From positions 1 to 16,385 of the forward strand of contig JADNRV010000712.1 in NCBI GenBank assembly GCA_015499995.1: a stretch of 16,385 nt of DNA, given 5' to 3'. Of the stretch, positions 2,056 to 12,785 are shown one piece after another. How positions within the stretch are numbered: position 1 is the stretch's first letter; every line of letters begins with the position of its first letter. The stretch comes from Flammula alnicola (taxonomy: Eukaryota > Basidiomycota > Agaricomycetes > Agaricales > Strophariaceae). Under the pieces are notes generated by a model that did not search any database, was not told the DNA's origin, and saw only the letters and a list, made by a program, of their open reading frames with translations. Both the position numbers and the translations under genes were made by a program.

Positions 2056-2220
2056 ATGCCCGAAGACAAGTCGCTTGCTCGAAGCGCACCCGTTGAGCCC
2101 TCGCGTGTCAACGCTGAGGCAGAAGAAGGCTGCAGAGCCTCTAAACCTGCAGAAGACAGTTCCGGACTGAAATTCCGTGAAGAAGAAAAGCCGCCATCGA
2201 AGATCGGCGCACGTTTATGA
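2056..2220 (+). CDS. small ORF inside the TRIM-like element, 54 aa, unknown
   Basis: An ATG at 2056 opens a 54-codon frame ending in TGA at 2218-2220. The peptide starts MPEDKSLARS and is rich in E, K, S and A, with no signal peptide, membrane segment or recognised domain. It is the first ATG frame of useful length after the left LTR, where a gag remnant would sit. I do not recognise it. It may be chance; its last third runs into the local tandem repeat. Confidence 0.2.
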   Translation: MPEDKSLARSAPVEPSRVNAEAEEGCRASKPAEDSSGLKFREEEKPPSKIGARL

Positions 2221-2288
2221 AGAAAAGTCGCTGTCGACGATCAGCGCATGTTGAAGAAGAAAAGTCGCCGTTGAAGATCGGCGCATGC
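2178..2288. repeat. tandem repeat inside TRIM-like element, three units
   Basis: Three imperfect units of 34-40 bp begin at 2178, 2218 and 2252. Each starts TGAAGAA and contains AAAAG(T/C)CGC and a GATC(G/A)GCGCA core. No function is apparent. Confidence 0.75.
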
Positions 2289-5392: not shown

Positions 5393-5445
5393 TACTACTA
5401 CAAATGATGCAAGTGAAGCTGAAGCTTCACGGTCAACCGCATACT

Positions 5446-6468
5446 TCATGAAGTATCACTGTTACGACGTGCTACACCTGGGATCATCTTCCGGACAGCC
5501 CATTTCCCTAGAGACTCAATGAAGAACGCAAATGCGTCGCAGACCTGTATGGAAAATTCTCCCTCTTGGTTACGGGCTTCTCCTCGTTGTTTTGGAACTT
5601 GGAAAGAAGGCTGGCCTCGAGTGAGAGATAGAGGATCTGCCGTCAAGACATCCCTTTCCGTGCCCGTGCGACGCTCGTACCTCTTGTTGTATTCGTCCAT
5701 ACGGATAGTGATGCCCCTCAACCATTCGTTACTGTCAACCATCCACGGAGAGCGGGCGTAGTTCTGACTGATAACATCGCGCACTCTCGTCGTCGATTCC
5801 TCGTATTCCTCTTCAAACATGAAGCCCCCGGACATGTTTTTCTTCCCCTTGGTTGTTGTTACGCATGCGTGGCCGGCGAACTTCATCCCCCTTCTTGTAA
5901 ACTGTTCTTTGTTCCTCTCCCACCACACGTCCATGTTAGGATCCTCATGTTCCAATCCGGTTATGACAATGACGATGGGAACCTTGCCTTCACATATGAT
6001 CCGGGAGAACAGGTCATGGTTGACGACCCAAATATCTCTGAATCGCGTCTCGCGGATGCAATATACAAGGAGATTGATGCCGCCTTGCAGATTCTGAACG
6101 AGGTAACGGAGATTTTTCATAGCTGTATCTGCTGGAACGGTACCCTCCTCGCCTTGGTTGAGTCCGCATGTATCCCAGAGACAATGTGGTTTGTTGTCGA
6201 TGGAGACTTCGTAGGGGCAGCTCTTGAAGGTGTATCCTCGCGTTTGGCTAGATACTCCGGCGACGTCTTCACCAGCAATCATGTTTATTAGAGAGCTTTT
6301 ACCCGTCCCAGTTTCTCCAAAAATGATGACATTGGGTGTGTGGGTGAGCTCGTGTTCGGAGGTGTCAGAATCGAAAGGCTGGGTAGGATGATTCAGGGTG
6401 GGATGCACCTCCGACGAAATGTTCGTCGGAGTGGTTTCCCGACTCGATGTATGTCGATCAACGGGCAT
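5446..6468 (-). CDS. AIG1/GIMAP-like P-loop GTPase, intact, 340 aa
   Basis: A single uninterrupted frame encodes a fungal P-loop GTPase of the kind usually annotated as G-domain or AIG1-like protein. Visible motifs are Walker A GETGTGKS (residues 51-58), a switch-I threonine near 80, DTCG (99-102) and TGLE (170-173) in the place of the NKxD base-specificity motif. A disordered S/T/H-rich leader of about 45 residues precedes the domain. The C-terminus has a hydrophobic patch (DAFAFFIES) that could touch a membrane or partner. GTP binding is expected; the biological role is unknown. The ATG at 6468 is chosen because the G domain begins about 45 residues later and a good 3' splice site lies one base before it. 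The diverged paralogue at 11991-12785 points the other way, with a foldback element between them. Confidence 0.85.
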   Translation of the reverse strand: MPVDRHTSSRETTPTNISSEVHPTLNHPTQPFDSDTSEHELTHTPNVIIFGETGTGKSSLINMIAGEDVAGVSSQTRGYTFKSCPYEVSIDNKPHCLWDTCGLNQGEEGTVPADTAMKNLRYLVQNLQGGINLLVYCIRETRFRDIWVVNHDLFSRIICEGKVPIVIVITGLEHEDPNMDVWWERNKEQFTRRGMKFAGHACVTTTKGKKNMSGGFMFEEEYEESTTRVRDVISQNYARSPWMVDSNEWLRGITIRMDEYNKRYERRTGTERDVLTADPLSLTRGQPSFQVPKQRGEARNQEGEFSIQVCDAFAFFIESLGKWAVRKMIPGVARRNSDTS

Positions 6469-6469
6469 T

Positions 6470-6523
6470 CTGCTCGTAAAATTGTCAAATTCCAGAGCCT
6501 CAACTGTAAGAAAGAGTACTCAC
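6470..6523 (-). other. candidate 5'-UTR intron of the GTPase gene
   Basis: On the minus strand, GTGAGT at 6523-6518 and GAGCAG ending at 6470 delimit 54 bp with a branch-like TTGACA near the 3' end. The ATG follows one base after the AG. Splicing to an upstream ATG would hit an in-frame stop, so if real it sits in the 5' UTR. Confidence 0.4.
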
Positions 6524-6731
6524 ATGTATCTGTACAAGTATCATGCAATCGACTACGAGGGGGGAAAACTTTGGAATGGAAAGTTGGAAGTGTGTTCGTG
6601 CTAGCTATAAAGATCAAAAACTGACCGGTGACCTGCCATTGATAATGTTCCTGTGCTCACGCGCCACAGCCTCGTTCCCTTGATGCTTCTTGGATGAGCC
6701 TCTGTGAAATGTAAAGTGTTGCACATACCTT

Positions 6732-6812
6732 TGTTACAGTGTACCGTATAATATGGTACAGCGAACGTGTACACTGTGCCGTGTGATATGGGTTCAGCGA
6801 ATTCGCTGAACC
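6732..6812 (+). repeat. left terminal inverted repeat of foldback element
   Basis: The 81 bp match 11421-11501 in reverse complement with five mismatches and no gap. They contain two diverged subrepeats of about 37-40 bp (CAGTGTACCG..GGTACAGCGAA, then CACTGTGCCG..GGTTCAGCGAA). They end in a perfect 22-bp palindrome centred on GAATTC (6791-6812). Confidence 0.9.
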
Positions 6813-7054
6813 AGTGAATAATGTATTGTATATAATAGATAGTATACTATGTATATATAATATGATCTAGCAATACCTAATACATTAGTTACACATGGCC
6901 GATGGGCCCAATAAAAGTAAATCGGCAATGCCATTAGGTTTGAAATTAGATTGGCAGTGCCGATGCCTGCTAAAATGGGTTGGCATTTCATTAAATATGG
7001 CCGATTGGCATTGTCTAAAAGGTTGCGAGAGCCTCTCTGCATCCCGATAAAAAA

Positions 7055-9041
7055 TTCCAGGTTTTATTGGTGGTCAATTCAATTATGTTGGGTTCATTTT
7101 GGTTGCTAATATTAATTTTATCAGACATGGTCCATTGCCAAATGTCTGGGACTGATGCCGATGCCGATGCCGACTCACCAGGTCTCGGCACCCTGAGAAA
7201 TTTAATATAGATCATATTTAGATTAATTTAATCAGACACAGTGCATTCCCAAACATCACTGACTGCTAGTGCCAGTGCCGACTCATGGGACATCCCCCAG
7301 CAGCTGATTCATTTTTTTCCAGGTTGTATTGATGTTTAATTGAATGACATTCTGGTCATTTGATTGCAAATGCGTCTAATATGAATTTAATCAGATGTGG
7401 TCCAATCCCCCGTGTCTCTAACTGGTGCCGATGCCGATGCCGACTCACAGAGAACCTCTCGGCACCCTGATATATTGTTCTCCAGCCTTTATTGTTATTC
7501 AATTGACTCACGTTCTGGCCATTTTAGTCGTAAATGCGTCTAATATTAATTTAATCAGACATGGTCCATTCACGAGCATCTTTAACTGTTGCCGATGCCG
7601 ATTCCGATCCACAGAGAACCTCTCGGCACCCTGATATATTTTTTCCAGCCTTTATTGTTGTTCAATTGATTCATGTTCTAGTCATTTTGGTCACAAATGC
7701 ATCTAATACTAATTTAATCGGACGTGAGCCATTCCCGAGCATCTCTAACTGGTGCCGATGCCGATGCCGACTCACAGAGAACCTCTCGGCGCCCTGATAT
7801 ATTTTTGCCAGCCTTTATTGTTGTTCAATTGATTCACATTTTGGTCATTTTGGTCGTAAAGGCATCTAATCTGAAGTTAATCAGACATGGTCCATTCACG
7901 AGCATCTTTAACTGGTGCCGATTCCAATGCCGACCCACCAGACACTTCTCGGCACTCCAATATATTTTTTCCAGCCTTTAATTGCTGTTCAATTGAATGT
8001 TATTCTGGTCATTTTAGTCACAAATGTATCTAATACTAATTTAATCGGACGTGAGCCATTCCCGAGCATCTCTAACTGGTGCTGATGCTGATGCCGACTC
8101 ACAGAGAACCTCTCGGCACCCTGATATATTGTTTTCCAGTTTTTATTGTTATTCAATTGACTCACGTTCTGGCCATTTTAGTCGTAAATGCATCTAATAT
8201 TAATTTAATCAGATATGGTCCATTCACGAGCATCTTTAACTGTTGCCGATGCCGATTCCGACCCACAGAGAACTTCTCAGCACCCTGATATATTTTTTCC
8301 AGCCTTTATTGTTGTTCAATTGATTCATGTTCTGGTCATTTTGGTCGCAAATGCATCTAATACTAATTTAATCGGATGTGAGCCATTCCCGAGCATCTCT
8401 AACTGGTGCCGATGCCGATGCCGACTCACAGAGAACCTCTCGGCACTCTGACATATTTTTTCCAGCCTTTAATTGCTGTTCAATTGACTTACATTCTGGC
8501 CATGTTAGTCGCAAATGCATCTAATATTAATTTAATCAGACGTGAGCCATTCCCGAGCATTTCTAACTGGTGCCAATGCCGATTCCGACTCACAGAGAAC
8601 CTCTCGGCACTCCCATATTTTTTTCCGGGACTTTATTGCTGTTCAATGGACTTACGTTCCAGCCATGTTAGTCGCAAATGCATCTAATATTAATTTAATC
8701 AGACGTGAGCCATTCCCGAGCATCTCTGACTAGTGTTAGTGCCGATGCCGACTCACCAGACACCTCTCACCATCCCAATACATATTTTTGCAGGTGGTAT
8801 CTATGTTCAATTGACTCATGTTCTGGACATTTTAGTCGCAAATGAATCTAATATTAATTTAATCAGACGTGAGCCATTCCCGAGCATCTCTGACTGGTGC
8901 CAGTGCCAATGCCGACTCACAGGACACCTCTCGGCACCCTGATTTTTTTTTCTGGCCTTTATGGATATTCAATTGAATCATGTTCTGGTCATTTTGGTGA
9001 TAAATACATCTAATCTTAATGTAATCACCAGATGTGATCCA
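7055..9041 (+). repeat. left-arm array, about 12 units of ~163 bp
   Basis: Units are marked by GCCGACTC-like cores near 7169, 7276, 7441, 7605, 7768, 7930, 8095, 8260, 8423, 8587, 8748 and 8911. Spacing is 161-165 bp except the shortened second unit (107 bp). Each unit has one to three GCCGAT hexamers, an inverted pair GGTGCCGA/TCGGCACC, an AT-rich stretch with TTTATTG.TGTTCAATTGA and an AATTTAATCAGAC block. A 654-bp higher-order copy relates 7425-7634 to 8079-8288. The frames crossing the units share one repeated peptide and are artefacts of the repeat. Confidence 0.92.
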
Positions 9042-9656
9042 TTTCTATGTCTTTCTGACATACCTATACTGATTTTGACTTATACAGTACCACTCTCTCA
9101 TCCTCAGCATGAGATGGAGGTCATCAGTTCATAGTCTCAACTGAGATTCAGGCTTCCCATATAATAATTATGGATAATCATACCCTTTTCATTTGCAAAT
9201 CTTGTATACCTGCCAATGAACTTCAAGACATGATCAGCTAAACGACACCCTTCTTGATAGATAGGACTTGCAATAGCAAGCCTTGAATTCATCTTGGAAC
9301 TTTTGCTCCCCACTAAGCTTTATGGCTTTTTTCAGAGATATAATATCAGATATAAACATTGGAAAGTGTGCCGTAGTTAACTTATTAGTTGCAGATAGCC
9401 AACAGACATGTCAAAGTAAGTCAATTTCGCATTTTTGGGACTCCTCCACTTTTTTTCTCTGTATCATTTCTACTACTCATATTAAGGCAATCTGTGATTA
9501 TTTGCCAATTGGCCATATTTAATAAAATGCTGTCCGACTGAATGCCAGTCAGGCTATTATACAAAATACTGATTGGCCTTTAATTATCTCCAATTCAGTC
9601 ATATACAGCCAATAACGAGTACCGGCACCAGCCAGACAAGTGCAGGAGGAGACTGT
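9042..9656. other. unique centre of the foldback element
   Basis: This is the only stretch of the element not repeated in the other arm. It has one small open frame (9283-9522, 79 codons from ATG, cysteine-rich, no recognised domain, no DDE/D signature) that I do not call a gene. From about 9502 to 9620 it becomes similar to the GCCGAT-rich segment near the right end. Confidence 0.6.
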
Positions 9657-11060
9657 GTCCAATTAAATTAATATTAGATGCATTTTCGACCAAAATGACC
9701 ATAATGTGATTCAATTAAACATAAATATAACCTGGACAAAATTTAATGGGGTGCTGAAAGGTTCTCTATGAGTCGGCATTGGCATTGGCACCAGTCAGAG
9801 ATACTCGGAAATGGATCACATCTGATTAAATTTATATTAGATGGATTCACAACCAAATTGGCCAGAACGTGAGTCAATTGAACGTAGATACCACCTGCAA
9901 AAATATGTATTGGGATGGCGAGGTGTTTGGTGAGTCGGCATCGGCACTGGCACCAGTCAGAGATGTTCTGGAATGGCTCACGTCTGATTAAATTAATATT
10001 AGATGCATTTGCGACTAACATGGCTGGAACGTAAGTCCATTGAACAGCAATAAAGTCCCGGAAAAAAATATGGGAGTGCCGAGAGGTTCTCTGTGAGTCG
10101 GAATCGGCATTGGCACCAGTTAGAGATGCTCGGGAATGGCTCACGTCTGATTAAATTAATATTAGATGCATTTGCGACTAACATGGCCAGAATGTAAGTC
10201 AATTGAACAGCAATTAAAGGCTGGAAAAAATATGTCAGAGTGCCGAGAGGTTCTCTGTGAGTCGGCATCGGCATCGGCACCAGTTAGAGATGCTCGGGAA
10301 TGGCTCACGTCCGATTAAATTAATATTAGATACATTTGTGACTAAAATGACCAGAATAACATTCAATTGAACAGCAATTAAAGGCTGGAAAAAATATATT
10401 GGAGTGCCGAGAGGTGTCTGGTGGGTCGGCATTGGATTCGGCACCAGTTAAAGATGCTCGTGAATGGACCATGTCTGATTAAATTCAGATTAGATGCATT
10501 TACGACCAAAATGACCAAAATGTGAATCAATTGAACAGCAATAAAGTCCCCAAAAAATATATCAGAGTGCTGAGAGGTTCTCTGTGAGTCGGCATCGGCA
10601 TCGGCACCAGTTAAAGATACTCGTGAATGGACCATGTCTGATTAAATTAATATTAGATGCATTTGCGACCAAAATGACTAGAACATGAATCAATTGAACA
10701 ACAATAAAGGCTGGAAAAAATATATCAGGGTGCCGAGAGGTTCTCTGTGGATCGGAATCGGCATCGGCAACAGTTAAAGATGCTCGTGAATGGACCATGT
10801 CTGATTAAATTAATATTAGACGCATTTACGACTAAAATGGCCAGAACGTGAGTCAATTGAATAACAATAAAGGCTGGAAAACAATATATCAGGGTGCCGA
10901 GAGGTTCTCTGTGAGTCGGCATCGGCATCGGCACCAGTTAGAGACACGGGGGATTGGACCACATCTGATTAAATTCATATTAGATGCATTTGCAATTAAT
11001 ATTAGATACATTTTTGACTACAATGACCAGAATGTGATGACTGAATATAAATATAACTTG
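9657..11060 (-). repeat. right-arm array, 8 units of ~163 bp, inverted
   Basis: The same unit family runs on the minus strand, with cores near 9772, 9932, 10096, 10259, 10423, 10586, 10749 and 10913. Units correspond in mirrored order to the left-arm units near 7441, 7605, 7768 and 7930 and then 8423, 8587, 8748 and 8911. Left units near 8095 and 8260 have no partner. The stretch 9999-10280 matches 8406-8687 at 281 of 282 bases by my reading. Confidence 0.92.
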
Positions 11061-11064
11061 CATA

Positions 11065-11275
11065 AATGCTGATCGGCCTATGCTGACAGCCGATCGGCCA
11101 TATGCCGGTCAGCCTATTCTACAAAATGCCGATCAGACACATGCCAATCAGTCTAATGCTGAATCCCGATTGGACAAATGCTGATTGGCCTATTTTAATA
11201 AAATGCTGGTCGGCCTATTTATTTATTGCCAATCACCCATATAATACATAGTACATGATTATAGTATTCACTGCC
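11065..11275. repeat. GCCGAT/ATCGGC-rich spacer of the right arm
   Basis: Irregularly spaced copies of GCCGATCGGC and variants (GCCGGTCAGC, GCTGATTGGC, GCCAATCAG) alternate with AT-rich words such as TATT.TACAAAATG. The left arm has only a reduced counterpart (6900-7020), so the element is asymmetric here. The centre holds a direct relative: 9544-9573 and 11104-11133 agree at 25 of 30 bases. Confidence 0.7.
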
Positions 11276-11420
11276 GATGTAATTTAGTGTCCACCGGCAC
11301 TGCCGATTTAATTTTATCGGGCCCATTGCGCATTTACAAATATGTATTAGGTTGCTAGATCATATTATACAGTATAATGTATACTACCTATTAATAATTG
11401 TATACACTACATTATTCACC

Positions 11421-11501
11421 GGTTCAGCGAATTCGCTGAATCCACATCACACGGCACACTGTATACGTTCGCTGTACCATATCATACGGTACACTGTAAC
11501 A
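11421..11501 (-). repeat. right terminal inverted repeat of foldback element
   Basis: Partner of 6732-6812, 94% identical. Its copy of the 22-bp palindrome (11421-11442) has one mismatch. Confidence 0.9.
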
Positions 11502-11990
11502 TGCCTACCTGAGTGTTGCGCCTCTTGACTTGGACTACTTCTCACCGCAGCAGTGTAATTCGATGGCGAATGCGATTGGCTCCTGAAGCCGATGTTAGAG
11601 ATAGAACCCATCTTTGACAGAGAAGTCGAGAGAATTCCGCATCACTAATAGAGTCACGCGGTTCTGGTGGGCGCCTATGTGGCCTCGTGGCTAACTTTGT
11701 ATAGATTGTGCAGCAGTTTGTGGGTCAGGCGTGTGAGAGTTTAGAGATTAGAGTTACGCAAACCACGACCGCGTTTGTTCATAAAGCCGACGGGGTTGTT
11801 TCCTCCCCACTCAAACACCTTATTCTCGCGAAACAGCCTGCGGGTCACCCCTACCGTCTACTTACTGTATATTTCTTATGCAATTGCAGGGCGGGAGTCG
11901 CGACGACGGTCAGGCAAGTGTACCTGCTTGCGCCATTTTTTGGGGCCTAGTAGTCAAAGCCTTATACCTCATGTTCAATTTTAGAGAAAT
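11502..11990. other. upstream region of the second GTPase
   Basis: No gene is recognised. Two intron 3'-end-like sites occur: a pyrimidine-rich run with CTTAC ending in TTGCAG at about 11889, and TTCAATTTTAG shortly before the ATG at 11991. Spliced 5'-UTR sequence is therefore likely, but I cannot fix the donors. Open frames here (for example 11708-11950) show no known domain. Confidence 0.4.
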
Positions 11991-12785
11991 ATGGCCTCTC
12001 CGCACAACATTATCGTGTTCGGCGAATCAGGAGCTGGGAAAAGCTCCATCGTCAACATGCTGGTTGGGTCAGACGTAGCGAAGATCTCCAGCCTGGCCAC
12101 AGGATGTACTTTCGAGAGCAACCCCTACGATTTCAACATTGAAGATGTTTTGTTCAAGATACACGATACCGCCGGTCTAGATGAAGGTGAAGCAGGCAGA
12201 GTTCCGAAGATTGAAGCAATCGTGCAGCTATGGAAGCTCCTCAGAGATCTCAAGGACGGTGTCAGCCTTCTGATATTCTGCATGAGGGCCCCAAGAATGA
12301 AAGATTCCCCCAAGAACAACTGGAGTCTCTTCCACGATATCTTGTGCCAAAAGAAAGTACCCATCGTGATCGCTATCACCGGGCTCGAAGGGGAAGAGGT
12401 GATGGACGACTGGTGGGGGCGACGCGAGAACAAGGAAGCCTTTTAGAATTATGAGATGAAACCCTCCGGCTTCGCGTGCATCACGGCATTCAAGGGGAAG
12501 CTTAAGAATGGGACGTATATGCTGCAGGACGAGTACGACGAATCCAAGGGCAAGATGGAGAAATTGATCGTCAACCACCATTTAGAAAACCCATGGCGCG
12601 TCAATAAACTGGAGTGGTTCGAGGATATTTACGAGACCACATACAAGTCTAGGTGGTGCAAGACTATAGAGCATAAAACGAAGGTTGGAGAGGGGCGCAA
12701 GGCAGCACAGCGATTGGTTGATGAGTGCGGGATGTCTTCGGAGGAGGCAGATAGGCTGGGGAAGATGTTCGAAGAAGTGGGTTAG
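11991..12785 (+). pseudogene. AIG1/GIMAP-like P-loop GTPase interrupted by an in-frame TAG
   Basis: The frame from ATG 11991 encodes a GTPase related to the one at 5446-6468. Motifs are Walker A GESGAGKS (residues 11-18), DTAG (59-62) and TGLE (130-133). Codon 152 is TAG (12444-12446). The frame then continues unbroken for 112 more codons to TAG at 12783-12785, still aligning with the paralogue: ITAFKGK here matches VTTTKGK there, and the EEY/DEY segment is also shared. The residue lost is the one after E-x-F in both proteins. The full product would be 264 residues, lacking the long N-terminal leader and C-terminal tail of its relative. Most likely this is a recent nonsense allele. Alternatives are stop readthrough, a sequencing error, or removal of 12399-12446 as a 48-nt intron. 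Confidence 0.75.

What the first reader, a model, noticed from the sequence alone, without database searches (positions are those of the whole stretch)
6732..11501. A 4.77-kb foldback transposon-like element in a basidiomycete
The sequence shows 81-bp outer inverted repeats at 94% identity, two long inverted arms of ~163-bp tandem units (about 12 left, 8 right) and a 615-bp unique centre with no transposase. This architecture is that of foldback elements known from Drosophila FB/Galileo and plant FARE. I do not recall a described basidiomycete family with this unit. Transcription across it would give a very long hairpin RNA, and the DNA could extrude a cruciform; both are inference.
Basis: partly seen in the sequence, partly recalled or inferred. 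Interest (0 to 1): 0.88.

Follow-up and report, generated by a model that had tools for sequence, protein, structure and literature searches.

The report
Foldback jumping element in a mushroom
The window holds one of at least ten near-identical copies of a mobile hairpin-shaped DNA element in the mushroom Flammula alnicola; its two ends match those of 12-13 kb transposons that carry a KDZ-type transposase, which likely moves it, and its long mirrored arms are packed with a short DNA word that also fills those transposons and is predicted to be their recognition tag.

Summary
Confirmed and extended. The feature is a 4,790-bp element (6722-11511, 10 bp longer at each end than reported) with a perfect 7-bp target duplication. 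Ten copies share its centre; 8 of 8 distinct sites read have perfect 7-bp duplications; 3 of 3 sites tested have an empty counterpart. It is a recently mobile foldback transposon. The partner exists: 12.4-13.4 kb elements with the same two unlike ends and a KDZ transposase domain. Arms recombine: the centre is inverted in 3 of 9 copies. Part of the centre is a captured host condensin-subunit-3 gene fragment. The surprise: the long elements, exons included, and the arms are saturated with a CGGCA-core word (7-16/kb; flanks 1.4-1.5/kb), beyond synonymous codon shuffling in the main exons tested. A second lineage (a 14.4-kb KDZ element and three foldbacks) shifts the word's spelling in partner and foldbacks alike. 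All 7 long copies examined also encode a Zn2Cys6-like cluster; that protein class binds CGG. Likely, not shown: the arms are arrays of the family's recognition motif. My paper searches listed no other KDZ-linked foldback.

The parts
6722..11511 (.). whole foldback element, 4,790 bp, 5'-CACATACC...CCTACCTG-3'
   Evidence: shared ends and 7-bp duplications at 8 of 8 distinct foldback sites read; termini pattern
6715..6721 (.). left target-site duplication AGTGTTG
   Evidence: identical to 11512-11518
11512..11518 (.). right target-site duplication AGTGTTG
6722..6812 (+). left terminus (type CACATACCTTTGTTACA) with terminal inverted repeat; 6722-6866 is 88-90% identical to the left end of the KDZ elements
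11421..11511 (-). right terminus (type CAGGTAGGCATGTTACA) with terminal inverted repeat; 11269-11511 is 75-78% identical to the right end of the KDZ elements
6791..6812 (.). perfect 22-bp palindrome at the inner edge of the left inverted repeat (20 bp at 11421-11440); a shorter version is kept at the C612 ends of the second lineage
   Evidence: self-match
6813..7048 (+). left subterminal region
   Evidence: 97-99% identical in sister foldback copies, 91% in the C2 variant
7049..9027 (+). left arm: 12 tandem ~163-bp units, CGGCA 16.2/kb
9028..9661 (+). centre, 10 copies genome-wide, inverted relative to the ends in 3 of 9 copies read
9096..9329 (-). captured fragment of a host condensin complex subunit 3 gene (81% identical to a place on C301)
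9662..11038 (-). right arm: 8 units, mirror order of the left arm, CGGCA 16.0/kb
11039..11420 (-). right subterminal region; with the right inverted repeat CGGCA 12.7/kb
   Evidence: 98-99% identical in sister foldback copies, 88% in the C2 variant

Best explanation
This is a mobile, non-autonomous foldback transposon of Flammula alnicola that shares both of its unlike ends with 12-13 kb elements carrying a KDZ transposase domain, is likely moved by that transposase, and has arms built of a repeated unit rich in the CGGCA-core word that saturates those elements and is predicted to be their recognition motif. Shown: the ends, the 7-bp target duplications, the empty sites, the transposase domain in the larger elements, the arm structure, inverted centres and changing unit numbers, the word density and its lineage-specific spelling shared by foldback and partner. 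Inferred: that the inverted centres arose by recombination between the arms; that the KDZ transposase moves the foldback in trans; that a protein of the element, most likely its private Zn2Cys6-like zinc-cluster protein, binds the word; and that the arms give a transposase-less element many binding sites, through better synapsis of the ends or protection from silencing.
For: Ends: 48 exact termini, 22 left-type and 26 right-type; 17 of 17 same-contig pairs of exact ends are one left plus one right type, facing. 7-bp duplications at 8 of 8 distinct foldback sites and in 3 of 5 long lineage-1 elements. KDZ 2e-37 and CxC2 5.6e-17 in the C268 element; KDZ hits inside all five long elements, that of C457 with stops. 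Foldback and long elements are alike only at the ends, apart from one 61-bp match at 75% (E 0.001) in 2 of 5. Empty sites 3 of 3 tested, of 8 sites. Centre inverted in 3 of 9 copies with the innermost units exchanged. Word density 7.2-15.9 CGGCA/kb in all 19 elements counted against 1.4-1.5 in flanks and 1.4 in a 7-kb region of an unrelated KDZ of the same genome. GCCGAT in C268 transposase exons: 13 against 2.5 expected by synonymous shuffling, 0 of 2000; zinc-cluster frame 13 against 2.8, 0 of 2000. CCGGCA share: lineage 1 0.02-0.13, lineage 2 0.42-0.73, in partner and foldbacks alike. Zinc cluster C-X2-C-X6-C-X9-C-X2-C-X6-C in 7 of 7 long copies examined; its reading frame rings on 14 contigs, all 14 with a lineage-1 terminus (against 36).
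Against: No binding or transposition was measured. The zinc cluster scores 19.6 bits in Pfam, below the cut-off of 21, and a structure prediction was too poor to use (pLDDT 47.7). The zinc frame finds no relative at E <= 0.001 in the large database, and several of its copies have stops. In the lineage-2 element C854 the KDZ exon shows only weak word excess (9 against 5.55, 72 of 2000). The spelling split is one of proportion: C854 still holds TCGGCA 88 times, and five (GCCGAT)2GCCGA places lie on contigs with lineage-2 ends and KDZ hits. The word was chosen after looking at C268. Two of five long lineage-1 copies and the C2 variant have no duplication. Trans-mobilisation rests on shared ends and duplication length only.
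Confidence: 0.74

Rival explanations
1. The arms are neutral satellite-like expansions. The element is moved by KDZ through its ends alone, and the word spread by slippage and gene conversion without being read by anything.
For: Unit numbers vary between copies and arms appear to recombine; part of the word is in short tandem runs such as (GCCGAT)3. Tandem arrays can expand neutrally (general knowledge).
Against: 75 of 113 GCCGAT in C268 are isolated, not in runs. They sit in exons beyond what synonymous shuffling gives. Word positions are more conserved between C268 and C129 (93.1%) than other positions (88.8%) or permuted hexamers (89.1%). The spelling shifts together in partner and foldbacks.
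Confidence: 0.18
2. The foldback acts mainly as a hairpin-RNA source that feeds small-RNA silencing of the KDZ family, in the manner of a Mu-killer locus (recalled).
For: A transcript would fold strongly: MFE -3023 kcal/mol, 1,289 of 1,979 left-arm bases paired with the right arm.
Against: The arms do not occur in the five KDZ elements compared; only about 145 bp and 243 bp at the ends are shared, so most small RNAs would not match them. The family amplified recently (10 near-identical copies). No transcription data.
Confidence: 0.06
3. Assembly artefact or a single inverted duplication of a satellite.
For: Inverted repeats can be mis-assembled in general; no reads were available here, and the inverted centres in particular could be assembly flips.
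Against: Ten copies, 8 of 8 distinct sites with perfect 7-bp duplications, and a second, diverged family of the same build.
Confidence: 0.01

Closest known systems
Galileo (P superfamily), Drosophila foldback-like element
   Same: Long internally repetitive inverted repeats; tandem units with extra transposase binding sites (PMC3688188, abstract and discussion read); non-autonomous copies and expansion, contraction and recombination of the inverted repeats (PMC3573991, passages).
   Different: The partner's transposase is KDZ here, not P. The first 10 bp of the two ends differ. The word fills the whole coding partner, not only the arms.
Tm1 / FARE, foldback elements of the Mutator superfamily
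   Same: Composite inverted repeats with a transposase-bearing relative (Tm1: PMC3169594, abstract only; FARE recalled).
   Different: Tm1 makes 9-bp duplications and has a Mutator (Phantom) type transposase; here 7 bp and KDZ.
Kyakuja (KDZ superfamily), Laccaria and other Agaricomycetes
   Same: 7-bp target duplications and 5'-CA..TG-3' termini (PMC12730594, section 3.2.1 read); KDZ transposase.
   Different: Described for Kyakuja-1/2_LB as having no terminal inverted repeats and carrying TET/JBP; here there are 81-bp inverted repeats starting at base 11, and no Tet_JBP match inside the lineage-1 long elements. No foldback derivatives in the parts of that paper I read (abstract, sections 3.1.1 and 3.2, legends, passages).
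VANDAL/VANC anti-silencing system of Arabidopsis
   Same: Short family-specific motif at high density, amplified by tandem repeats, different spelling in sister families, read by a protein of the element (PMC5735166, passages).
   Different: There the motif lies mainly in non-coding DNA; here it is also in exons. The reader protein is not proven here, and the build is a foldback.

Membership tests
Foldback transposon (structural class) | Long inverted repeats made of tandem subrepeats around a central loop | tested here: met
Foldback transposon (structural class) | Dispersed copies with target-site duplications and empty sites | tested here: met
   8 of 8 distinct sites read with 7-bp duplications; empty sites 3 of 3 tested
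KDZ superfamily (as non-autonomous member) | Same ends and duplication length as an element with a KDZ transposase domain | tested here: met
   duplication seen in 3 of 5 long elements
KDZ superfamily | The element itself encodes the transposase | tested here: not met
   no frame above 135 aa inside the element; it is non-autonomous
Kyakuja | 7-bp duplication and CA..TG termini | tested here: met
   against PMC12730594 section 3.2.1
Kyakuja | No terminal inverted repeats | tested here: not met
   81-bp inverted repeats from base 11 of each end
Kyakuja | TET/JBP dioxygenase in the element (TET+ families) | tested here: not met
   32 Tet_JBP matches listed genome-wide; the only one on a contig with a lineage-1 terminus (C268:24478-24891) lies 25 kb outside the element
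Kyakuja | Transposase falls in the Kyakuja clade | not tested
   no reference Kyakuja set at hand; no tree built
Galileo / P superfamily | P-type THAP transposase in the partner element | tested here: not met
   the C268 partner has KDZ and CxC2; no THAP or P match among the C268 frames scanned
Mutator foldback (Tm1, FARE) | 9-bp duplication (stated for Tm1) and Mutator-type transposase | tested here: not met
   7-bp duplications; KDZ in the partner
VANC-like motif-reading system | A protein of the element binds the motif | not testable with these tools
   needs EMSA or ChIP; only a Zn2Cys6-like candidate was found

The most novel reading that the evidence does not exclude
A KDZ transposon family tags its own DNA from end to end, exons included, with a lineage-specific CGG word read by its own private zinc-cluster protein, and foldback elements are parasites of that tagging system: arrays of the tag between borrowed ends, with word spelling and reader co-evolving separately in two lineages of one mushroom.
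Probability: 0.47. Interest if true: 0.87.

Novelty: new variant of a known kind. Interest (0 to 1): 0.74.

Why it matters
Foldback elements have been tied to P and Mutator transposases; this ties the architecture to another superfamily, KDZ, in a fungus, with partner and derivative side by side and insertions polymorphic in one genome. It makes an old question testable: what the tandem units in foldback arms are for. Here the sequence suggests an answer: they carry the same short word that appears to be kept even in the partner's coding exons, spelled differently in two lineages. If a protein of the element reads it, that would be a fungal counterpart of plant VANC-type recognition and would explain how a transposase-less element competes.

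Tried and rejected
Assembly artefact: rejected by ten copies with separate duplications. Hairpin-silencing role: not favoured, because the arms are absent from the five KDZ elements compared. TET/JBP as part of this family: PF20515 rang nowhere, controls included, so that answer says nothing; PF12851 is listed 32 times, none inside a lineage-1 long element, eight or more of them 3.3-3.5 kb from other KDZ hits (against 26). Idea that word clusters are confined to introns: one 61-nt intron does hold GCCGATGCCGAT, but clusters lie in exons too, and the intron scan placed only 1 of 14-19 clusters per strand in candidate introns. A 157-172 bp period of the word: marginal in C268 (14.1 against 12.9) and C854 (17.0 against 13.1), absent in C129 (8.3 against 11.7), and the control scan was coarser than the observed one. 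Zinc-cluster structure prediction: too poor to use. Relatives of the zinc-cluster frame: none at E <= 0.001. Pfam on the host condensin-like gene: nothing for two of three pieces and only sub-threshold HEAT and Cnd1 for the third; the identification rests. Papers: judged by titles and abstract starts, searches (30 of 68 listed; 20 of 684; 16 of 16; 12 of 15; 12 of 183) listed no KDZ-linked or fungal foldback element; one search listed 8 of 31,544, none naming Flammula alnicola. The library is open-licence PMC only. The word was picked post hoc from C268 and then counted in the other elements.
Full report
1. The observation. The outer repeats, arms and centre are as described. The element is 10 bp longer on each side: 6722-11511, 4,790 bp, starting CACATACC and ending CCTACCTG, inside a perfect 7-bp duplication AGTGTTG. 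The two ends are unlike in their first 10 bp (CACATACCTT... and, read inwards, CAGGTAGGCA...) and alike from base 11 on. There is no transposase frame inside.

2. It is a family. The centre has 10 copies listed at 99% or more in the same genome (one of them partial, C153), plus five diverged partial matches; re-alignment of nine of the ten gives 98.6-100%. The window and contig C851 share one insertion site and duplication; their flanking alignments are 97.7% and 98.3% identical, so they are probably alleles. Of the ten, I read nine completely, at 8 distinct sites; 8 of 8 have a perfect 7-bp duplication. The tenth, C445, spans 12 kb between its ends and was read only in part. A related copy on C2 has arms but not this centre, and no duplication. 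A terminus pattern finds 48 exact matches in 74.4 Mb, 22 left-type and 26 right-type; the further 21 matches with one mismatch are about as many as the reversed-pattern control gives (26). In 17 of 17 contigs with two exact ends these are one left and one right type, facing.

3. It has moved recently. I joined the flanks of three of the eight sites, dropping one duplication. In all three a full-length counterpart of the same length without the element exists in the same assembly: 99% (C778; also 95% on C687 and C223), 100% (C834), 99% (C11; also 94% on C13). So these insertions are present in one haplotype or duplicate and absent in another. The window's own insertion is present on both contigs seen.

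4. The partner. The same two ends bound elements of 12.4-13.4 kb. Five were read: C129, C268, C272, C457, C679; three of five have a perfect 7-bp duplication. C268 carries KDZ (PF18758, 2e-37) and CxC2 (5.6e-17), and all five have KDZ hits, that of C457 with four stops. The closest protein relatives with an organism name are from Phlegmacium glaucopus, 65% identical, and confirm one 61-nt intron. Foldback and partner are alike only in the terminal 145 bp (88-90%) and 243 bp (75-78%), apart from one 61-bp match at 75%, E 0.001, in two of the five. Duplication length and CA..TG ends are those given for Kyakuja (PMC12730594 section 3.2.1), but Kyakuja-1/2_LB are said to lack inverted repeats, and no Tet_JBP match falls in a lineage-1 long element, so I file it as KDZ with Kyakuja-like ends, not as Kyakuja.

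5. The arms. Units of the two arms are mirror partners in order: L3/R1 99%, L4/R2 93%, L5/R3 94%, L6/R4 97%, L9/R5 99%, L10/R6 93%; other cross-arm comparisons are mostly 55-91%. The left arm has an extra pair, L7/L8, nearest to L3/L4 (95-96%). In 3 of 9 copies (C33, C339, C287) the centre and its innermost units are inverted relative to the ends, the product expected from recombination between arms. The few informative sites place unflipped C412 with flipped C33 and C287, so at least two flips are likely, though copies may also convert one another, and reads were not available to exclude assembly flips.

6. The centre. Window 9096-9329 is 81% identical to a place on C301 whose predicted protein matches condensin complex subunit 3 (PDB 5oqn, 2.7e-6; query joined from two stretches). 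Pfam found nothing for the first two pieces and only sub-threshold HEAT and Cnd1 matches for a third. So the centre contains an old captured host-gene fragment. Its CGGCA density is low, 3.2/kb, against 16/kb in the arms.

7. The word. Hexamer GCCGAT occurs 8.1-8.6/kb in the five long elements, 7.3-7.6/kb in the seven foldbacks and 8.4/kb in C2, against 0.7/kb in the window flanks and 0.1/kb in 18.8 kb of other flanks. GCCGATGCCGATGCCGA occurs 128 times in the genome, its reversed control 0; of the 100 places listed, 94 are on contigs with a lineage-1 terminus, and 5 of the other 6 on contigs with lineage-2 termini and KDZ hits. GCCGAT lies on both strands along the whole length. In the C268 transposase exons it occurs 13 times against 2.5 (sd 1.4) after synonymous codon shuffling, 0 of 2000 reaching it; in the zinc-cluster frame 13 against 2.8, 0 of 2000; exon A alone is weaker, 4 against 1.2, 39 of 2000. 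Between C268 and C129 word positions are 93.1% identical, other positions 88.8%, permuted hexamers 89.1%. A 7-kb region around an unrelated KDZ of the same genome (C645) has CGGCA at 1.4/kb.

8. A second lineage. The diverged centre hits led to C612: a 3,457-bp foldback with 165-bp units, arms 92.8% alike, ends 74% identical to ours over 87 bp and the same captured centre at 78-79% over 264 aligned positions. Its end sequence finds further pairs: foldbacks C54 (3,075 bp) and C203 (4,046 bp) and a 14,379-bp element C854 with a KDZ hit. C54, C203 and C854 have perfect 7-bp duplications and C612 has 6 of 7. Here the word shifts: CCGGCA makes up 0.42 of (TCGGCA+CCGGCA) in C854 and 0.54, 0.55, 0.73 in the foldbacks, against 0.12-0.13 in the five lineage-1 long elements and 0.02-0.06 in the ten lineage-1 foldback-type elements, C2 included. 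CpG is low in C612 arms (0.52 observed/expected) and the C468 region (0.47) against 0.82 for the window arms, but CpG decay would not turn TCGGCA into CCGGCA. In the six longest C854 frames, CGGCA exceeds shuffling with 0 of 2000 in four, 10 of 2000 in one, and is weak in the KDZ exon (72 of 2000). The split is one of proportion, not absolute: C854 holds TCGGCA 88 and CCGGCA 64 times.

9. A candidate reader. All long copies examined, 7 of 7 (six lineage-1 with C296, and C854), encode C-X2-C-X6-C-X9-C-X2-C-X6-C, the spacing of fungal Zn2Cys6 clusters (spacing rule recalled). Pfam Zn_clus gives 0.001, 19.6 bits, under its cut-off of 21. That Zn2Cys6 proteins read CGG triplets is established knowledge, recalled. 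The C268 frame rings on 14 contigs, all with a lineage-1 terminus, several copies with stops, and does not ring on C854, whose version is 35% identical in the cluster. It has no relative at E <= 0.001 in the database. Binding is untested.

10. How it likely works. KDZ transposase would bind the paired unlike ends and move the foldback in trans, leaving 7-bp duplications. The arms would load a word-reading protein of the family, helping the ends to meet as proposed for Galileo, whose arm repeats bind its transposase's THAP domain (PMC3688188, abstract and discussion), or keeping the copy from being silenced, as VANC motifs do in Arabidopsis (PMC5735166, passages). The data do not choose between the two.

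11. Organism. A protein named from Flammula alnicola matches C851 over 343 of 343 residues at 100%, and its longest contig, 571,617 bases, equals C851's length; the species is in Strophariaceae, Agaricales.

Noticed in passing
window 5446-6519 (-) and 11985-12446 (+): The element sits between two related MMR_HSR1/AIG1-like GTPase genes; the left one is only 83% identical in protein to its C851 counterpart although the DNA alignment of 5393-11770 to C851 is 97.7%.
   Followed up: partly
L015/L016 (C272) and L017/L018 (C129): These two long elements share the same right flank but have different left flanks, and C272 has no duplication; ectopic recombination or a chimeric contig.
   Followed up: no
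G000 C296, C312, C445, C357: Facing ends lie 31, 17.6, 12 and 50 kb apart, which suggests nested insertions.
   Followed up: no
L009 around 8705-8765: A 61-nt transposase intron contains GCCGATGCCGAT between its 5' site and branch point; a homologous protein fits the splice.
   Followed up: yes
G000 C49, C77, C59, C447, C548, C415, C119, C264: Tet_JBP matches lie 3.3-3.5 kb from KDZ hits, so TET-carrying KDZ elements seem to coexist in this genome with this TET-less family.
   Followed up: partly
G000 C66:73603-80457, C861:33318-40114, C183:16044-18558, C153:24623-29283: Further facing end pairs of the second lineage, 2.5-6.9 kb, not read; possibly more foldback families.
   Followed up: no
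G000 C250, C357, C630: Contigs with lineage-2 ends and KDZ hits that nevertheless hold lineage-1 type GCCGAT runs; perhaps a third or mixed lineage.
   Followed up: no
L022 (C2): A 3.6-kb foldback variant with nearly uniform arm units, almost no centre and no duplication; perhaps an older or rearranged subfamily.
   Followed up: partly
KDZ elements C268, C854: A marginal 157-172 bp period in the positions of the word, close to the 163-165 bp arm unit; not seen above control in C129.
   Followed up: partly
window 2178-2287: A 37-bp tandem repeat, three copies.
   Followed up: no
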